Below, piece by piece: positions 10,365-30,011 of a stretch of DNA of 64,000 nucleotides (within the stretch, counting starts at the first letter, position 1; every line of letters starts with the position of its first letter). The notes beneath the pieces are model-generated. The model was not told the DNA's origin, made no database searches, and saw only the letters and a program-made list of their open reading frames with translations. Position numbers and translations under genes: made by a program. This DNA is from a virus, in IMG/VR virus record IMGVR_UViG_3300002835_000172, positions 1 to 64,000 of that record. The stretch is one strand, 5' to 3'.

Positions 10365-10370
10365 GTTGCC

Positions 10371-10395
10371 ATAATAGCCCCGCATCCGCTAGATT
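10371..10395. promoter_or_regulatory. Overlapping divergent promoters (gene 10110-10364 and SSB)
   Basis: Leftward -10 TATTAT is at 10376-10371. Rightward, AGCCCC (10376-10381), 8 bases, TAGATT (10390-10395) matches the AGYCCC-N8-TAnnnT architecture seen at five cassette genes. Use of one may interfere with the other. Confidence 0.5.
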
Positions 10396-10445: not shown

Positions 10446-10916
10446 GTGAGTGCATCACCCGTAACATTGGTTGGAAATCTAACCGCTGACCCAGAACTGA
10501 AGTTCTTGCCAACAGGAGTTGGTAAGTTGACTTTCGGTATCGCAGTAAACCATTATTGGACTGACCAAGATGGTGAAAAACAAGAGAAGACTTCGTTCTT
10601 CAATATCATTGCGTGGCGCAACCTCGCAGAAGACTGTGCGAATGTCCTCACCAAGGGCGTTCGTGTTGTTGTAACAGGACGCTTGGAACAGCGTTCGTGG
10701 GACGACAAGGAAACAGGCGCAAAGCGTTCAACTGTTGAAGTTCTTGCTGACAACATTGGTTTGTCTGTTGGGAACATTGAGACATTTGTTCGTAAGCAGA
10801 AGGCTGAAGGACAAAACGGTTCGTATGCCCCGAAGGCTAAAACCGCATCCGCACCAGCACGCACTGCACCGAAGCCGATTGCTCAGGTACAACTCGAAGA
10901 GCAAGAGGCTTGGTAG
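10446..10916 (+). CDS. ssb: Single-stranded DNA-binding protein
   Basis: GTG start at 10446, 7 bases after AGGAGG. Residues about 4-110 are a bacterial-type SSB OB fold (TLVGNLTADPELKFL, FFNIIAWRNLAEDCANVLTK, VVVTGRLEQRSWDDKETGAK). The tail is a Pro/Ala/Lys linker ending LEEQEAW rather than the usual DDDIPF tip, so partner binding through the tail may differ from host SSB. The leader holds an ACCTCAG/CTGAGGT hairpin (10402-10424). It likely coats DNA during phage replication. Confidence 0.92.
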   Translation: MSASPVTLVGNLTADPELKFLPTGVGKLTFGIAVNHYWTDQDGEKQEKTSFFNIIAWRNLAEDCANVLTKGVRVVVTGRLEQRSWDDKETGAKRSTVEVLADNIGLSVGNIETFVRKQKAEGQNGSYAPKAKTASAPARTAPKPIAQVQLEEQEAW

Positions 10917-15496: not shown

Positions 15497-15551
15497 ACAG
15501 GACATTAGATGCGATGTGGTTGAGTGATTCATAAACGGGACTGCCAACCTT

Positions 15552-15740
15552 TTAGAGCGGTTCGGGCAGGGTGGGGAGTGATGCGATAATTTTTTGTGTC
15601 GCCTTCTTTTTTTTAGGTTTATCTGACACGGGTCTGTTGGGTTTTGGTTTGTAGATGGTTTCTAGTTGTTTGATTTCTTTTTGGAGTTGTTTGATTTCTT
15701 TGTCTAGTTGGGCGAGTTGTTGGTCTAATGTTTTTTTCAT
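15552..15740 (-). CDS. Small coiled-coil protein (62 aa)
   Basis: Starts MKKTLDQQLAQLDKEIKQL and continues with heptads (QKEIKQLETIY), then a Pro/Lys-rich tail. ATG overlaps the stop of the DUF6378-like gene by 4 bases. Probably an oligomerising accessory protein. No family recognised. Confidence 0.6.
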   Translation of the reverse strand: MKKTLDQQLAQLDKEIKQLQKEIKQLETIYKPKPNRPVSDKPKKKKATQKIIASLPTLPEPL

Positions 15741-16057
15741 TTTGTTTCTGTTTCTGTGTGGTGGTGGATCATGTTGAGGCAGGTGAGGTAGCCGATTGTG
15801 TCTAGGAGTGTGTCGTGGTGGAGGTTTCCTGCTTCTAGGTTTGTTCGTAGTCTTGCGAGTTTGACGGAGACCATGAAGAGGATTGCGTCGTTTATGGTGA
15901 GTTCTTTTCCTGTGAGTGTTTGGTAGATGTTGATGACTTTTGTGTAGTCGTCTTTTGGGTGTCCGTATGTGTTTTGGCGGTCTTGGTTTACGATTTTGTA
16001 GGCTTCTTGGAGGATTTCGGTTCCGGGTGTGGGCGTATTTTTTGGTGTGGTGTTCAT
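15737..16057 (-). CDS. DUF6378-like protein (106 aa)
   Basis: Has the layout DRQNTYGHPKDDYTKVINIY, then KELTINDAILFMVSVKLARL, then HHDTLLDTIGYLTCL, which matches the phage family DUF6378, distantly reminiscent of all-alpha NTP pyrophosphatases (MazG-type). Function in phage is not established. Its promoter is the cassette motif at 16066-16085, 8 bases before the ATG. Confidence 0.7.
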   Translation of the reverse strand: MNTTPKNTPTPGTEILQEAYKIVNQDRQNTYGHPKDDYTKVINIYQTLTGKELTINDAILFMVSVKLARLRTNLEAGNLHHDTLLDTIGYLTCLNMIHHHTETETK

Positions 16058-16065
16058 ATCGTTTT

Positions 16066-16085
16066 AGTTTATCTGTCCTGGGACT
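16066..16085 (-). promoter_or_regulatory. Cassette promoter: AGTCCC-N8-TAAACT
   Basis: Minus strand AGTCCC (16085-16080), 8 bases, TAAACT (16071-16066), 8 bases, ATG at 16057. No -35 box at the usual distance; the AGTCCC block takes a fixed position next to the -10 instead. Confidence 0.65.
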
Positions 16086-16150
16086 GTTTGGGGTGGTTTT
16101 TAAAAATTTCGCGCGGCGGTCAGAGGTTTTTTAGAGATGCGCGTTTGGGG

Positions 16151-17131
16151 TCATACCGCTTCTAGTGAGCATATTTGGAGGTATTCACTGAATGTCATTT
16201 CGTTGAATAGGAAATTGTTTTTTGTGCTGATTCCTAGTATTTCGTTTTTAACGGATTCATTGTCGTTGTTGTTCAGATCCATATGCCCAAAATCTATTCT
16301 TGCAATTCTTCTAGGGTATTGTTTCAACATTTGCTTGTATTCGTCACACATTTGGTTACTTGCACCTTCTTCTGAGTGCATAAATGGGTGGCTGTTCATG
16401 TGTTTTACGGTTTGAACTGATGGTCCGACGACGTTGTACCCTTTTGATACTAGTTTCATGGACAATATGGTTTCTTCAAGTAGGACATTGGGTTCTTTTG
16501 TATATATTTCGTGCATTGATCCAGTGGAGAACAAAAATGCTCCAGAAACATGATTGTGCCTATTGTCTAATATGTTTCTGGTTTCGCATTTATCTTCTAG
16601 TGGTCTGATTTGTTTGTCGATTAGTCGTTCAATCCATTTGATGTCGCTTTCGTTGACAATGTTGCTGTTTCTTGGTGGGTGCCACCATCCACCTTCTTTT
16701 TTTTCGTTATAGGTGTATGAATATGGGTATTCGCTGACCGCTATTTTTGTTCGGTAGATATTGGAAAGTTTCTTAAAATCCTCTATGAGTTGTAAGTCCC
16801 AATTGTTCCTGAATTTCATGTGTGAATCTATTTGTAGGTAGAAGTCCTCTCCGTCATAGAAGGAGTTGGCAATTTGTCTTGAAATTGAAGGACCTAGAGC
16901 GGTTGGCGCTTTGTTGAATTCTTTTGATATTTTTGTGTGACTAAATTTTCTGTTTAACACGTTTTCTATGTCTTCTGGTAGTTCGTTGTAATAGTTGAAA
17001 TGAACACCAACATTTACGATGCTTTCTTTTGATGAAAAAAGATTCAAACTGTCTATCGTGTTTATTATTTCATAGTCGTGGTAAGCAGGGATTTGGACAA
17101 AGATTGATGGGGTGGAAGAATTCAGGTTCAT
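16151..17131 (-). CDS. Glycosyltransferase, GlcNAc-transferase (GT60-like) family (326 aa)
   Basis: Start ATG 17131 overlaps the nuclease stop (ATGA). SIFVQIPAYHDYEIINTIDS opens a GT-A fold; DSH at 102-104 (LQIDSHMKF) is the metal-binding DxD-type motif; HVSGAFLFSTG occurs later. This set resembles Skp1-type polypeptide GlcNAc-transferases (PF11397). The acceptor could be a virion or host glycan or protein. AT-richer than its neighbours, hinting at separate acquisition. A paralogue is at 25749-26741. Confidence 0.75.
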   Translation of the reverse strand: MNLNSSTPSIFVQIPAYHDYEIINTIDSLNLFSSKESIVNVGVHFNYYNELPEDIENVLNRKFSHTKISKEFNKAPTALGPSISRQIANSFYDGEDFYLQIDSHMKFRNNWDLQLIEDFKKLSNIYRTKIAVSEYPYSYTYNEKKEGGWWHPPRNSNIVNESDIKWIERLIDKQIRPLEDKCETRNILDNRHNHVSGAFLFSTGSMHEIYTKEPNVLLEETILSMKLVSKGYNVVGPSVQTVKHMNSHPFMHSEEGASNQMCDEYKQMLKQYPRRIARIDFGHMDLNNNDNESVKNEILGISTKNNFLFNEMTFSEYLQICSLEAV

Positions 17132-17661
17132 AGATAGGTCAGTTCTTTTTCGTTTAGTTTTAGTCTTGGACCATAACCGTAGTCGGTTTTTTGGGCTTTT
17201 GCAAAGAAATTTTGGCGGGTTGTTCCACCGATTATTTGGAACTGTGTGTTTGTGCCTATGTTTTCCCATTGGTGTTTAGGCTGGTTGCACCATACGACTA
17301 TGCATTGTTCTGTGTCGGGTTTCCATAAACCGTATTTGCAGTGTTCAGGGTCGTTGATTATAAGGTCTTTTTGTGATGATGTTTTGATCTCAGTTTTTTT
17401 GTTGTTTATGGTGGTGTCGAAGCCGTTGTCTGCGCCGACATAGATTTCCCAATCTATTTCTGTGTTGTAGTAGCGGGAGATGATGACTTCCCCTGCCTTC
17501 CCGAGCATGATGATGCCTTTTTCGGTGGCTCCTGCCGTGTATTTGCGGTCGGTTACTTGGTGTTCGTTTTTGTTTGCTTTACAGAGATCGGTGAATCGGC
17601 GTAGTTGTAGTACTTCACGGGCGGTTAGTCGCATCAACGGATATTTAGTAGCGGTTTCCAT
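17128..17661 (-). CDS. PD-(D/E)XK-type nuclease (177 aa)
   Basis: Contains GKAGEVIISRYY (Glu 58), then GFDTTINNKKTEIKTSSQ giving Asp 82 and Glu 91-x-Lys 93, the D-x(8)-ExK core of restriction-endonuclease-fold nucleases. The specific family is not recognised. It lies two genes from a DNA methyltransferase and next to an HNH nuclease, so a restriction-like role is possible. Own cassette promoter 8 bases before ATG 17661. Confidence 0.65.
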   Translation of the reverse strand: METATKYPLMRLTAREVLQLRRFTDLCKANKNEHQVTDRKYTAGATEKGIIMLGKAGEVIISRYYNTEIDWEIYVGADNGFDTTINNKKTEIKTSSQKDLIINDPEHCKYGLWKPDTEQCIVVWCNQPKHQWENIGTNTQFQIIGGTTRQNFFAKAQKTDYGYGPRLKLNEKELTYL

Positions 17662-17669
17662 TTTGTTTT

Positions 17670-17689
17670 AGTTTATCTAGCGGGGGACT
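17670..17689 (-). promoter_or_regulatory. Cassette promoter of the PD-(D/E)XK nuclease
   Basis: AGTCCC (17689-17684), 8 bases, TAAACT (17675-17670), 8 bases to ATG. The TAA inside TAAACT is also the stop codon of the upstream HNH gene (17675-17673). Confidence 0.65.
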
Positions 17690-18218
17690 GTTTTATTCTA
17701 GAGCGTTGCCAATCCCTTTTTCTTTTTCTATGCGCCTCTAGTTTTTCAGGGTCACTAAGACGTTTTTTGTATGCATTGTTGGAGCATTCTTTACATTTTC
17801 TATAAACTCTTACAGTCATAGTCCCATCAGAATTTTTAATTTCTCCGTATTGGTGCACCCATGTCCCCACTACGGCATATTCGTGCCCTTTTCTACAATG
17901 CGTCTGAAGCCTATTTTGTGGGGGTTGCCTATTTTTTTTGTGCATATCAATTGAATTATCGGAAATAGTGCCAAGCCATAGATGTTCTGGATTCACGCAG
18001 GCAGGAATGTCGCAACTGTGACATACAGATAATCCATCAGGGATCTGACCTTTAAATAAGGTGTACGCACCTCTATGGGCGGAACCAATCCTCTTATTAA
18101 ACCAAAATTTTCCGTAACCTTTTCTATCTTTACATCCAGTCCATAACCAGCAGGTGTCTGTTTTTTCTACTTTTTGCCAAAACCGCTCTTCGTCTGTCAT
18201 TGTTTTTTGGAATGCCAT
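17673..18218 (-). CDS. HNH endonuclease (181 aa)
   Basis: CHSCDIPACVNPEHLWLGT is the characteristic core of the HNH_3-type family, preceded by CWLWTG and a GYGKFWF strand; a second zinc-type region (CRKGHEY ... KCKEC) follows and the C-terminus is a basic helix. Such proteins are common as free-standing homing-type nucleases in phages. ATG 18218 lies 6 bases after a cassette-type -10 box. Confidence 0.85.
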   Translation of the reverse strand: MAFQKTMTDEERFWQKVEKTDTCWLWTGCKDRKGYGKFWFNKRIGSAHRGAYTLFKGQIPDGLSVCHSCDIPACVNPEHLWLGTISDNSIDMHKKNRQPPQNRLQTHCRKGHEYAVVGTWVHQYGEIKNSDGTMTVRVYRKCKECSNNAYKKRLSDPEKLEAHRKRKRDWQRSRIKQSPAR

Positions 18219-18224
18219 TTTTAT

Positions 18225-18244
18225 ACTTTATCTAGTTGCGGACT
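18225..18244 (-). promoter_or_regulatory. Cassette promoter of the HNH gene (variant)
   Basis: AGTCCG (18244-18239), 8 bases, TAAAGT (18230-18225), 6 bases to ATG 18218. The stop codon TAA of the methyltransferase gene (18230-18228) is inside the -10 box. Confidence 0.55.
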
Positions 18245-18947
18245 CTTTTGCTATAGCAATATATTTTTCGTCTATATCGTATCCGATATATCGTCTGCCT
18301 AGTTTGTGGGCTGTTGCTGTGGTTGTTCCTATCCCGTTGAAGGGGTCTAGGACGATGTCGTCGGGCTGTGTGGTGAGTAGGACACAGTTTTCTACTAGTT
18401 GCGCAGGGAATGGTGCGGGATGGATTGTTTGCCGTTGTGGGGAGATGTCCCATATTTCGCCAAGGTATTTGGGGTCTATGTTCCCACGGAATGTTTTCGG
18501 CTTGTTTTTGGATAGCCAATAGACGTGTTCTGTGTTGGGGAGCAGATGGTCTTTACGAATGTTCGGGCTGTTTTTGCGGTTCCAAATGATCAGTTGATAT
18601 ATGTGTGCGTTTGTTTTGTGTATGAATTCTGTTGGTAGCCGTGCTTGGTTGTTGTGTCGGCGCGGTTTATGGTTGAAAAAGATTGAACCGTCTGGTGTGA
18701 TCACTCGGTGTAGTTCGTTGATTACTTCTATTATCCAGTTTTGGTATTCGTTTTCTGGCATGTTGTCGTGGTATTCGTTGTAGTCAATATTGTGTTTTTG
18801 CCAGATTTGGTTGCTGTTTTGTGTTTTGCCGTTTTGGATACCTTTTTTGTTGTATGGCGGTGAGGTGACAACTGTGTTGATTGTGGAATCAGGTAATTTT
18901 TTAAGTTCCTCTAATGCATCACCGCATTTTATAATGTTGGTCTCCAC
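18228..18947 (-). CDS. DNA N4/N6 methyltransferase, beta-type order (239 aa)
   Basis: Catalytic motif TSPPY at 28-32 comes before the AdoMet-binding DPFNGIGTT (201-209), the beta-class order. The serine in SPPY is common in N4-cytosine enzymes but also occurs in N6-adenine ones. A single-domain enzyme of normal size, with GTG start 7 bases after TAAACT. It may protect phage DNA, or pair with the neighbouring nuclease. Confidence 0.9.
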   Translation of the reverse strand: METNIIKCGDALEELKKLPDSTINTVVTSPPYNKKGIQNGKTQNSNQIWQKHNIDYNEYHDNMPENEYQNWIIEVINELHRVITPDGSIFFNHKPRRHNNQARLPTEFIHKTNAHIYQLIIWNRKNSPNIRKDHLLPNTEHVYWLSKNKPKTFRGNIDPKYLGEIWDISPQRQTIHPAPFPAQLVENCVLLTTQPDDIVLDPFNGIGTTTATAHKLGRRYIGYDIDEKYIAIAKESATR

Positions 18948-18954
18948 GCGTTTT

Positions 18955-18974
18955 AGTTTATCCAGCGTGGGACT
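18955..18974 (-). promoter_or_regulatory. Cassette promoter of the methyltransferase
   Basis: AGTCCC (18974-18969), 8 bases, TAAACT (18960-18955), 7 bases to GTG 18947. It begins immediately after the stop codon of the dehydrogenase-like gene. Confidence 0.65.
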
Positions 18975-19493
18975 TTAGAATGGTTCTCTGTTGACTGATT
19001 TAGCGTTTCTGGTTGTTTTCTGTATGCGCCAAATTGTGTTGCTGAAAAGCGTTTCGGCTTGGTCGGCGTTTTCCCCTGACAGGAGCATGATGTGATTTTC
19101 GGATGCTTCTGGAAGTGTTTCAAACGGGTAGCCCTGTAACGCACCTTCCACATATTGGCAGTTGGATGCATCCATCAGGAACCGCCAGTCTTTTTCTTCT
19201 TGTGGGGTATGAAGCGAGTTGAAATCTATGTAGAGACCTTTAAATGATTGGAGCGCTATTTGTGATGCTGTATTGAATGCGATTCCACCTGTCCCAATAC
19301 AAATGATTATGTCGCATTGTTTTTGAAGTGCTGTAATGTCGGGGAGTTCTATGATTCCTGCTTGTTTTGCAAGTTGTACAGTTTCTGATTTTCGGCTTTG
19401 GCTAGAGAAGTAGGTTTTGTGTCCTTTGGCGTTTAGCGACAAGGCAAGCGATCTTCCCATTCTGCCGGGTGAGACGATACCTATGCGGCTCAT
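18975..19493 (-). CDS. NAD(P)-binding beta-hydroxyacid-dehydrogenase-like protein, lacks C-terminal domain (172 aa)
   Basis: Begins MSRIGIVSPGRMGRSLALSL, the Rossmann start of the 6-phosphogluconate / 3-hydroxyisobutyrate dehydrogenase family. Only the NAD-binding domain is present (172 aa against about 290), so the helical dimerisation domain carrying the catalytic lysine is missing. It is either a binding protein or a decayed enzyme. ATG 19493 overlaps the upstream stop (ATGA). Confidence 0.7.
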   Translation of the reverse strand: MSRIGIVSPGRMGRSLALSLNAKGHKTYFSSQSRKSETVQLAKQAGIIELPDITALQKQCDIIICIGTGGIAFNTASQIALQSFKGLYIDFNSLHTPQEEKDWRFLMDASNCQYVEGALQGYPFETLPEASENHIMLLSGENADQAETLFSNTIWRIQKTTRNAKSVNREPF

Positions 19494-19795
19494 CGCCACG
19501 GCGTTGAATTGTCTCGCGTTTTTTGTAGCACTCCGCTGATAGCAAGATTTTTGGCAAATGTGGAGATGGCATGCACTACGCCGAGCGGTTCAGGGAACCC
19601 CAACTTTTCCGCCACGGCATCTAAGGTTTCGTTTTCTATTTCTGTCCAAACGGCAAGTACTGCTTGCGCCCCTGTTGTTTTGTCTGTGTAATAGTTGTTG
19701 GCGATTATGTCTATGCCTTGGATTTCCCATAGTTCAGGGTCATGTTTTTCCAGCAGTGGAACACGATTGAGGTTCGGTTCTGTATTTTCGCTCAT
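19490..19795 (-). CDS. Hypothetical protein (101 aa)
   Basis: ATG 19795 has AAGGAG 11 bases upstream. The sequence (GIDIIANNYYTDKTTGAQ, ETLDAVAEKLGFPEP) suggests a small alpha/beta protein. Coupled to the dehydrogenase-like gene. No family recognised. Confidence 0.65.
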   Translation of the reverse strand: MSENTEPNLNRVPLLEKHDPELWEIQGIDIIANNYYTDKTTGAQAVLAVWTEIENETLDAVAEKLGFPEPLGVVHAISTFAKNLAISGVLQKTRDNSTPWR

Positions 19796-19819
19796 TGTAT
19801 GTTGTTCTCCTTTCTGTCT

Positions 19820-19839
19820 AGTTTATGCAGGCGGGGACT
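19820..19839 (-). promoter_or_regulatory. Cassette promoter of gene 19490-19795
   Basis: AGTCCC (19839-19834), 8 bases, TAAACT (19825-19820). Unlike the others it has a 24-base leader with a real ribosome binding site. The upstream gene's TAG stop overlaps the AGTCCC block by two bases. Confidence 0.6.
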
Positions 19840-20730: not shown

Positions 20731-21213
20731 TTAAATACCTTCATTGCTGAGACGTGTTTTCCATCCAAGCCTTCCGTTTTCTCTTAATGTTTTGCGCATT
20801 TTTGCCTCTTCTCGTTCACGGTTTCTCCGCCCTACGAAAAGTAATGCGTGTGATCCGCTCATTGTGATTGCATAAATGTTTTTCGTTTGACGGTTGGGCG
20901 GGTTTGGGTGTTCTGATTTGATGAGGTATCCAAGTCGTGTCAGGTAGCCAAGTGATTCGTTGATGCGTCCTGAGTCTTGTTTTTTGAACAAAAATTCTTG
21001 ATAGTCGGTTGCCGAAAAGTCACGACTTTTTCTGAACTGTGCGTAAGACAGCACCTTGTGTGACAGCGTTCCGTATTTAAGATATTTTGATGGGTTCGTT
21101 AGCGGGGTATCTTCTATACCTAATTGTCTAAGTGATTTCCTGCCTTGCGAAACAGGCTTTTTACGGTTTTTCCGTGTGTCTATTCTTTTCGGTTTTTGCG
21201 GTGTGTTGTTCAT
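20731..21213 (-). CDS. Winged-helix-like DNA-binding protein (160 aa)
   Basis: Basic N-terminal tail (PQKPKRIDTRKNRKKP), then a region where SATDYQEFLFKKQDSGRINE is followed by SLGYLTRLGYLIKSE and a basic turn, consistent with a winged helix. Highly basic C-terminus. ATG 21213 is 7 bases after TAACTT (leaderless type). Probably a transcription or DNA-maintenance protein. Confidence 0.6.
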   Translation of the reverse strand: MNNTPQKPKRIDTRKNRKKPVSQGRKSLRQLGIEDTPLTNPSKYLKYGTLSHKVLSYAQFRKSRDFSATDYQEFLFKKQDSGRINESLGYLTRLGYLIKSEHPNPPNRQTKNIYAITMSGSHALLFVGRRNREREEAKMRKTLRENGRLGWKTRLSNEGI

Positions 21214-21250
21214 CGCCGTCAAGTTATCGCGGTGGTAGGGTTTTCGCTAT

Positions 21251-27252: not shown

Positions 27253-27624
27253 ATGATTGATGCAAGCAATATAGAAAATTTTTTTGATACGGAAAAAGCA
27301 AATTGCAGGGGTAAGAACATTGTTATGTTTTATCCCAACCACTCGCCGACTGATCGTCTTGGTAGAGAAAATGCCGCTAATGCCATACAGATTTGTTCGG
27401 AATGCGAAGTCCTAGAAGGATGTTTGGATTATGCTTTGCATTATGAGCCGCTCGGGTTTTGGGGTGGGAAGACTGAAGTTGAAAGAGAAGTTTTGAGAAG
27501 AGTTAGAGGTATAAAACTGCCACCAGAGCGTCAACCGTCTGACTCTATTCGTCGTTCTTCTAGGCGTGGTTTCATAAATAGCCAAGTTAGAAAGAGTTTG
27601 AGTTCCATAAAAAATGAGCAATAG
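27253..27624 (+). CDS. whiB: WhiB-family transcription regulator (123 aa)
   Basis: Four conserved cysteines (18, 48, 51, 57; ICSECEVLEGC) bind a 4Fe-4S cluster, and the family signature GFWGG is at 68-72, followed by a basic tail. Wbl proteins occur only in Actinobacteria and their phages and act by binding the housekeeping sigma factor, so this gene points to the host group and is a candidate activator or inhibitor of phage or host promoters. GAGGGG 4 bases before ATG. Confidence 0.92.
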   Translation: MIDASNIENFFDTEKANCRGKNIVMFYPNHSPTDRLGRENAANAIQICSECEVLEGCLDYALHYEPLGFWGGKTEVEREVLRRVRGIKLPPERQPSDSIRRSSRRGFINSQVRKSLSSIKNEQ

Positions 27625-29363: not shown

Positions 29364-30011
29364 ATGGCTGAAAAGGGTTTAACTAGAGAGTTTCTCGCTG
29401 AACGCGATTTGCGTATTTTCAAGATGAGGCAGGCTGGTATCCCTATCGCCGAAATTGCTAGACGGTTTGGAATTGGGTCTACCAATGTTTCCCATTCAAT
29501 TCGTAGGCAGTTGGGCAAGTTGAACCAAGAGGCTTTGCTTGCTTACCCTGAAGTTTTGCAAATGGAACTTGAGCGTTTGGATGCTTTGCAGTCCGCAATC
29601 TGGCCGATGACGCAACACAGAAAACAAAAAATGGATGACGGCACAGAGGTTGCTATTGAACCCGACATTAAGGCTGTTTCAACGGTTCTTTCAATCATTG
29701 ATCGTCGTGCGAAGTTGCTTGGTATGGAGCAAACTAATGTCAATGTGCAGATGGATGTGAGGGATGCTTCCCCTCTTCGCGCTGTACTTGCTGGTGCTCC
29801 CGGAGTTCTTAGCGCTGAGAAGTTTGATTCTGAAGCAGAGGGCAAGAAACTTCTTGCACTTATGGCTGATGCAGGGATCCTTCCAAAAGAGCAGATCAGG
29901 GAACTATTGAATGATTTCCCTGCTCTTGAAGATGGCGACGATATTCAGGATGCTGAGATAGTTGATGCTGAGGACGATGCCGTATCACAAAAAGAGATTG
30001 ACACCATCTAA
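29364..30011 (+). CDS. Helix-turn-helix protein, possible small terminase-like (215 aa)
   Basis: RIFKMRQAGIPIAEIARRFG then GIGSTNVSHSIRR is a clear homeodomain-like helix-turn-helix (residues about 18-50), followed by a long helical region and an acidic tail. Small terminase subunits have this plan, but it lies far from the portal, next to the primase, so a replication or regulatory role is as likely. ATG one base after the previous stop. Confidence 0.7.
   Translation: MAEKGLTREFLAERDLRIFKMRQAGIPIAEIARRFGIGSTNVSHSIRRQLGKLNQEALLAYPEVLQMELERLDALQSAIWPMTQHRKQKMDDGTEVAIEPDIKAVSTVLSIIDRRAKLLGMEQTNVNVQMDVRDASPLRAVLAGAPGVLSAEKFDSEAEGKKLLALMADAGILPKEQIRELLNDFPALEDGDDIQDAEIVDAEDDAVSQKEIDTI

What the first reader, a model, noticed from the sequence alone, without database searches (positions are those of the whole stretch)
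16066..19839. Cassette promoter AGTCCC-N8-TAAACT before five successive genes
Five leftward genes or gene pairs (16057, 17661, 18218, 18947, 19795) are preceded by AGTCC(C/G), exactly 8 bases, then TAAA(C/G)T; four of the five start codons follow 6-8 bases later. Two stop codons of upstream genes (TAA at 17675 and 18230) are inside the -10 box. A sixth copy (AGCCCC-N8-TAGATT, 10376-10395) precedes ssb. No -35 box fits. The fixed block next to -10 suggests binding of a phage activator or repressor, comparable to start-associated sequences of some mycobacteriophages but with another sequence.
Basis: seen in the sequence. Interest (0 to 1): 0.75.

Follow-up and report, generated by a model that had tools for sequence, protein, structure and literature searches.

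The report
Repeated AGTCCC-box promoters in actinophages
A family of freshwater phages, probably of Actinobacteria, places the same compact switch (the letters AGTCCC exactly eight bases before a start-of-transcription signal) in front of each swappable accessory gene and of the DNA-binding gene ssb, which points to a lineage-specific promoter type.

Summary
Five exact copies of AGTCC(C/G)-N8-TAAA(C/G)T lie in front of five leftward genes (0.03 expected). The sixth copy, at ssb, looks like chance in this window alone but is real: in relatives ssb is preceded by AGTCCC-N8-TATAGT or TATAAT, usually inside the spacer of a -35/-10 promoter. All 9 distinct ssb upstream regions with SSB at least 80% identical have AG(T/C)CCC-N8-TANNNT; none of the more distant ones does.

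In IMG/VR the correctly spaced motif occurs in 33 stretches; one base less gives 3, one more gives 0. It precedes about ten unrelated gene families. Boxes are conserved while spacer and flanks drift. Starts follow 6-9 bases after TAAACT, or 24 or more, mostly with a Shine-Dalgarno. That fits a promoter fixed to the transcription start and mostly leaderless mRNAs, not a translation signal.

Genes between copies differ between relatives, and some junctions fall inside the motif, so it also marks cassette boundaries. The factor that reads AGTCCC is unknown; an array-linked winged-helix protein (20731-21222) is a candidate, weakened because two very different versions accompany the same motif.

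New variant of a known kind: repeated start-proximal motifs of actinobacteriophages.

The parts
16066..16085 (-). motif AGTCCCAGGACAGATAAACT, start codon 8 bases downstream (ORF 15737-16057, DUF6378)
   Evidence: conserved in 15 unique orthologous upstream regions
17670..17689 (-). motif AGTCCCCCGCTAGATAAACT, start codon 8 bases downstream (ORF 17128-17661, 177 aa); contains the stop of the upstream HNH gene
18225..18244 (-). motif AGTCCGCAACTAGATAAAGT, start codon 6 bases downstream (ORF 17673-18218, HNH endonuclease); contains the stop of the upstream methylase
18955..18974 (-). motif AGTCCCACGCTGGATAAACT, GTG start 7 bases downstream (ORF 18228-18947, DNA methylase)
19820..19839 (-). motif AGTCCCCGCCTGCATAAACT, start codon 24 bases downstream with Shine-Dalgarno AAAGGAG (ORF 19490-19795, 101 aa)
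10376..10395 (+). ssb copy AGCCCC-N8-TAGATT; in relatives AGTCCC-N8-TATAGT or TATAAT
10366..10371 (+). -35 hexamer TTGCCA of the ssb promoter, spacer 18 (TTGACA in one relative)
10446..10916 (+). ssb gene, GTG start 50 bases after the -10, Shine-Dalgarno AGGAGG
15616..15635 (-). terminal degenerate copy AGACCCGTGTCAGATAAACC, no start codon nearby; conserved at the end of the array in relatives
15737..16057 (-). DUF6378 gene (106 aa)
16151..17131 (-). glycosyltransferase (GlcNAc family), second gene of the 177-aa cassette
17128..17661 (-). 177-aa protein of unknown function, recurrent cassette gene
17673..18218 (-). HNH endonuclease
18228..18947 (-). N6/N4 DNA methylase
18975..19499 (-). NAD-binding-like protein (174 aa), second gene of the first cassette
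19490..19795 (-). 101-aa protein, first gene of the first cassette
20731..21222 (-). winged-helix (PadR/MarR-like) protein linked to the array; candidate regulator
27253..27624 (+). WhiB-like protein; alternative candidate regulator

Best explanation
The motif is a lineage-specific promoter module of a family of freshwater phages whose hosts are probably Actinobacteria. TAAACT (TATAGT or TATAAT at ssb) is the -10 element read by the host housekeeping RNA polymerase. AGTCCC, held exactly 8 bp upstream (about -26 to -21, in the -35/-10 spacer), is a protein-binding box that sets when these genes are transcribed. In the accessory array it stands without a -35, so initiation there probably depends on the protein bound at the box. 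Transcription starts about 7 bases after the -10, which gives leaderless mRNAs for most cassettes and short Shine-Dalgarno leaders for the rest. Each accessory cassette (methylase, HNH endonuclease, DUF6378, 177-aa protein and others) carries its own copy, so exchanged genes arrive with regulation shared with ssb. Shown by sequence: motif, spacing, conservation, -10 identity at ssb, cassette context. Inferred: transcription start, leaderless translation, a box-binding protein and its sign (activator slightly preferred), timing.
For: Fixed spacing in 2.9 million viral contigs: N6 form 33 stretches, N7 0, N5 3, and these 3 resemble chance. In all 14 records with two or more copies, every copy is on one strand. 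About ten non-homologous gene families follow the motif. Among 58 unique copies the gap to the start is 6-9 in 51 and 24-28 in 7; the 24-base copies (AAAGGAG or ATGGAG) and the 28-base copy (CGGAG) have a Shine-Dalgarno. In orthologous upstream regions the two boxes are 89-100% identical, the free spacer bases 42-64%, the upstream flank 34-57%. At ssb, AG(T/C)CCC-N8-TA(T/G)(A/G)NT is present in 9 of 9 distinct upstream regions with SSB at least 80% identical, often with TTGNNA 18 bp upstream, while a 61% homologue (L194) shows a TTGACA-type promoter without the box. Only the 8-bp spacing recurs in window and relatives. A TANNNT -10 without a -35 and abundant leaderless mRNAs are documented for M. 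tuberculosis (PMC3898074).
Against: No RNA 5' ends are at hand for these phages. Three DUF6378 copies (L045/L096, L049/L163, L070) read TAAACC and one 177-aa copy (L162) TAAATC, losing the last -10 T. The conserved terminal copy has no start codon close by. Copies with gaps of 41 and 47 bases have at best a weak Shine-Dalgarno. Conservation of AAAAC after the -10 is more than a simple -10 requires. No regulator is proven, and no sigma region 2 is found in the records.
Confidence: 0.72

Rival explanations
1. The motif is a translation start signal (start-associated sequence) acting in the mRNA, as proposed for cluster K mycobacteriophages.
For: It lies within 6-9 bases of most start codons and is directional; cluster K and EF phages have comparable elements (PMC3203893; PMC7302621).
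Against: It has no Shine-Dalgarno core. Copies 24-28 bases away keep the same motif and usually have a separate Shine-Dalgarno. At ssb it is 50 bases from the start with its own AGGAGG and sits on a -10. No common RNA fold is evident around it.
Confidence: 0.08
2. The motif is an operator: a phage repressor, for instance the array-linked winged-helix protein, binds AGTCCC and silences an ordinary promoter until a later stage. (A variant of the best explanation that differs in the sign of control.)
For: The box lies between -35 and -10 at ssb, a classic repression position. The winged-helix protein resembles PadR and MarR folds, often repressors. It is found in every motif-bearing locus that extends far enough upstream. 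The ends AGT and ACT of the motif form a weak dyad.
Against: Array copies have no -35, so without an activator they would be weak promoters. The winged-helix protein exists in two versions (about 22% identity) with the same motif, and one of them occurs in relatives without the motif.
Confidence: 0.3
3. The motif is mainly a recombination junction: short repeated homology at cassette boundaries, conserved by gene exchange rather than by a function in transcription.
For: Gene content between copies differs between relatives. Stops of unrelated upstream genes end inside the motif. Junctions such as methylase-HNH change partners within it.
Against: Spacer bases vary while the boxes do not. ssb, which lies outside the array and has different flanks, keeps box and spacing with another -10 sequence.
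Confidence: 0.12
4. Chance similarity or simple shared ancestry of upstream regions.
For: The ssb copy in this window alone is within chance.
Confidence: 0.01

Closest known systems
Start-associated sequences (SAS/ESAS) of cluster K mycobacteriophages and the similar motifs of Microbacterium cluster EF phages
   Same: Short conserved directional motif next to start codons of several unrelated non-structural genes; may contain the upstream stop codon; very rare in host genomes; ESAS contain putative promoters (PMC3203893, PMC11373665, PMC7302621).
   Different: SAS is a 13-bp block with AGGAG at the ribosome-binding site, 3-7 bases from the start. Here two boxes with a fixed spacer, no Shine-Dalgarno, tied to a -10 and found up to 50 bases from a start.
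T4 middle promoters (MotA box plus -10, sigma appropriation)
   Same: A host -10 combined with a phage box at fixed distance in place of a -35 (PMC2988021).
   Different: MotA box is (a/t)(a/t)(a/t)TGCTTtA, 12 +/- 1 bp from the -10, centred at -30. Here AGTCCC at 8 bp, centred near -23. No MotA or AsiA homologue was detected, but that search had no positive control.
Promoter-early stem-loops (PeSLs) of T4-like phages
   Same: Regulatory elements repeated between genes in exchange-rich regions, proposed to mediate modular shuffling (cited in PMC4503421; the original papers were not held).
   Different: PeSLs join an early promoter to a terminator stem-loop. No consistent stem-loop accompanies the motif here.
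Cluster O 17-bp repeats and Microbacterium cluster EC, EG and EI intergenic repeats
   Same: Repeated intergenic motifs in actinobacteriophages; some deletions between copies (PMC4351075, PMC7302621).
   Different: The cluster O repeat is a dyad mostly away from promoters; the present element is asymmetric and part of a promoter.

Membership tests
SAS (cluster K type) | 13-bp consensus GGGATAGGAGCCC containing AGGAG in the ribosome-binding position | tested here: not met
   Consensus is AACAGTCCC-N4-TRGATAAACTAAAAC, no Shine-Dalgarno core
SAS (cluster K type) | Located within a few bases of the start codon | tested here: inconclusive
   51 of 58 unique copies at 6-9 bases, 7 at 24-28; ssb at 50
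T4-type middle promoter | Good match to a host -10 | tested here: met
   TAAACT in the array, TATAGT/TATAAT at ssb
T4-type middle promoter | MotA box sequence 12 +/- 1 bp from the -10 | tested here: not met
   AGTCCC at exactly 8 bp
T4-type middle promoter | MotA and AsiA genes in the phage | tested here: inconclusive
   No hit in ten records, but the control genomes did not ring either, and records may be partial
T4-type middle promoter | Sigma region 4 remodelled, box contacted by the activator | not testable with these tools
   needs biochemistry
Conventional sigma-A promoter | -35 and -10 hexamers 16-18 bp apart | tested here: inconclusive
   A -35-like hexamer at 18 bp is present at ssb in 6 of 9 distinct regions; none fits at the array copies
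Phage sigma-factor promoter | Phage-encoded sigma factor | tested here: not met
   No sigma region 2 in ten records, controls positive; the weak region-4 match is a general helix-turn-helix protein. Records may be partial
PeSL | Promoter joined to a terminator stem-loop between genes | tested here: not met
   Folding of the 80 bases upstream of, and the 60 bases from the start of, five copies shows no common hairpin

The most novel reading that the evidence does not exclude
A phage-encoded factor that binds AGTCCC in the promoter spacer takes over the role of the -35 element in leaderless promoters, and these 28-bp modules travel with, and recombine between, accessory gene cassettes, so that any captured gene joins the ssb regulon at once.
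Probability: 0.25. Interest if true: 0.72.

Novelty: new variant of a known kind. Interest (0 to 1): 0.52.

Why it matters
Promoters of phages of uncultured freshwater bacteria are essentially unknown, and the function of start-proximal repeats in actinobacteriophages has remained open since 2011. Here comparative data tie such a repeat to a -10 element and to a second, conventional promoter (ssb), which makes a specific model directly testable. It also suggests how phages can keep exchangeable accessory genes, including a DNA methylase and an HNH nuclease, under one common control.

Tried and rejected
The ssb copy was first set aside as chance and then reinstated from relatives. The 215-aa protein at 29364-30011 with a sigma region 4 match was rejected as a sigma factor: sub-threshold, and other helix-turn-helix models score as well or better. 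A single-subunit phage RNA polymerase was sought with PF00940 without hits, but the control genomes did not ring, so this is uninformative. DNA similarity to isolated phages shows only a cyanophage methylase, and a short motif query gives only chance hits. The genome-collection scan gave nine scattered hits in unrelated taxa without the gene-start context. Shine-Dalgarno absence in the window does not by itself separate motif genes from others (26 of 77 other genes have one at the first start). One alignment was too diverse for a relative search. Secondary structure gave nothing.
Full report
Observation. The window is part of a 64,812-base viral record. Most of its genes have close homologues in a 144,873-base relative (often above 90% identity), so it is probably a fragment of a genome of about 140 kb. 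A search without prior motif over all gene upstream regions also finds AGTCC-N8-ATAAA as the most frequent pair in the window and, together with overlapping variants, in the 145-kb relative. Four starts follow at 6-8 bases; the fifth gene has a 24-base gap containing AAAGGAG.

Spread. Scanning IMG/VR for AGTCCC-N6-GATAAACTAAA gives 33 stretches. Adding one base between the boxes gives none and removing one gives three without context. Two of the 33 (L020, L037) also look like chance. The same pattern in 84,980 bacterial and archaeal genomes gives nine hits in unrelated taxa, none with the gene-start context. The element therefore belongs to one phage clade. In all 14 records with two or more copies they lie on one strand. 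A weight-matrix scan of long stretches of relatives finds about 2-5 good copies per record of up to 145 kb, all or nearly all in one cluster, with zero or one match in shuffled sequence.

What follows the motif. Downstream proteins fall into about ten unrelated families: DUF6378, DNA methylase, a 177-aa protein, HNH endonucleases, a secreted-type 249-aa protein, 101-, 166-, 103-, 66- and 47-aa proteins. Gene order differs between relatives while the flanking genes stay the same, so the region is an array of exchangeable cassettes, most headed by a copy. The methylase is followed by motif plus HNH in the window, by motif plus the 177-aa gene in L045 and L049, and by an ordinary-looking promoter in L050 and L017. 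Because CAGTCCCCCGCTAGATAA reads Q-S-P-A-R-stop, unrelated upstream proteins (window HNH, the methylase of L049, the winged-helix protein of L021) share the C-terminus QSPAR.

Selection on the boxes. In orthologous upstream regions of three genes, pairwise identity is 89-92% in AGTCCC and 94-100% in TAAACT, but 42-64% in the four free spacer bases and 34-57% in the 5' flank. Repeated exchange alone would not spare two boxes and release the bases between them.

Why a promoter. Among 58 unique copies the start codon is 6-9 bases from TAAACT in 51 and 24-28 in 7. The copies with 24 and 28 bases carry a separate Shine-Dalgarno; copies with 41 and 47 bases have at best a weak one. This is what a fixed transcription start about 7 bases after a -10 would produce, with leaderless transcripts in the first group. 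M. tuberculosis has a TANNNT -10 without a conserved -35 at most promoters and about a quarter of its genes leaderless (PMC3898074).

The ssb copy. With three mismatches the window copy is not distinguishable from chance. Relatives settle it: the ssb upstream region reads AGTCCCGCGTCGGCTATAGT, AGTCCCGTCTTGACTATAAT or AGTCCCGCATCCGCTAGGAT. All nine distinct regions with SSB at least 80% identical have the box at 8 bp; none of the more distant ones listed does. Six of the nine also have a -35-like hexamer 18 bp upstream, TTGACA in L191, and the distant homologue L194 has TTGACA and a -10 without the box. Here the second box is plainly a -10 and AGTCCC sits in the promoter spacer. The same spacing to a different -10 sequence, in front of a different gene with a 50-base leader, argues against a translation signal and for a protein-binding box.

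Who reads the box. No sigma region 2 is found in ten records. A WhiB-like protein is present in all ten, also in the two relatives without the motif, so it is not diagnostic; it does support an actinobacterial host, as reported for freshwater actinophages (PMC10202952). A gene beside or within the array (window 20731-21222) is found in every motif-bearing locus that extends far enough upstream. Its model is confident in the core (mean pLDDT 81) and matches PadR/MarR winged-helix regulators weakly (best E 1.4e-3). Against it, two versions with about 22% identity accompany the same motif, and one version also occurs without the motif. It is a candidate only.

Difficulties. Three DUF6378 copies have TAAACC and one copy TAAATC. 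A terminal copy at the end of the array (window 15616-15635) is conserved, usually with TAAACC, without a nearby start codon; in most relatives it is also coding sequence, but in L045 and L049 it seems to be kept without that reading frame. It may be a leadered promoter for the next genes, a binding site only, or a remnant.

Comparison. Start-associated sequences of cluster K and the EF, EC, EG and EI motifs of Microbacterium phages are the nearest relatives in kind (PMC3203893, PMC7302621, PMC11373665), but the SAS sequence and ribosome-binding position are not met. T4 middle promoters are the nearest in presumed working (PMC2988021), but the box and its distance differ. PeSLs of T4-like phages are the nearest in their link to gene exchange (cited in PMC4503421), but no stem-loop is present. 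I found no description of this element in the held literature (seven searches), which does not cover subscription journals. Verdict: a real, lineage-specific promoter class, new variant of a known kind.

Noticed in passing
15616-15635 (-) and L006, L013, L019, L045, L049 and others: A degenerate extra motif copy at the downstream end of the array, nearly always TAAACC, without a start codon, conserved in position in relatives.
   Followed up: partly
15536-15553 (-): Conserved element AAAAGGTTG(A/G)CAG(T/C)CCCG about 80 bases after the terminal copy in 15 relatives, upstream of a small membrane-protein gene; function unknown.
   Followed up: no
17670-17689 and 18225-18244; L021, L045, L049: The motif doubles as C-terminal codons, giving unrelated proteins the shared ending QSPAR.
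   Followed up: partly
L006, L026: A 66-aa cassette gene begins with the first nine codons of the DUF6378 gene and then differs, which suggests a crossover just inside the reading frame.
   Followed up: no
L017, L050, L051-L055 downstream of the methylase: Instead of the motif there is an ordinary-looking promoter (TTGCTT, about 17 bases, TACGCT or TAGGAT) with a Shine-Dalgarno leader.
   Followed up: no
20731-21222 (-): Winged-helix protein linked to the array, with two highly diverged versions in relatives.
   Followed up: partly
L160, L161, L162, L011 upstream of the methylase: Motif variant AGTCCCCGCTTATTTAAATCTAAACGG, in which the upstream winged-helix gene ends inside the motif (QSPLI).
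   Followed up: no
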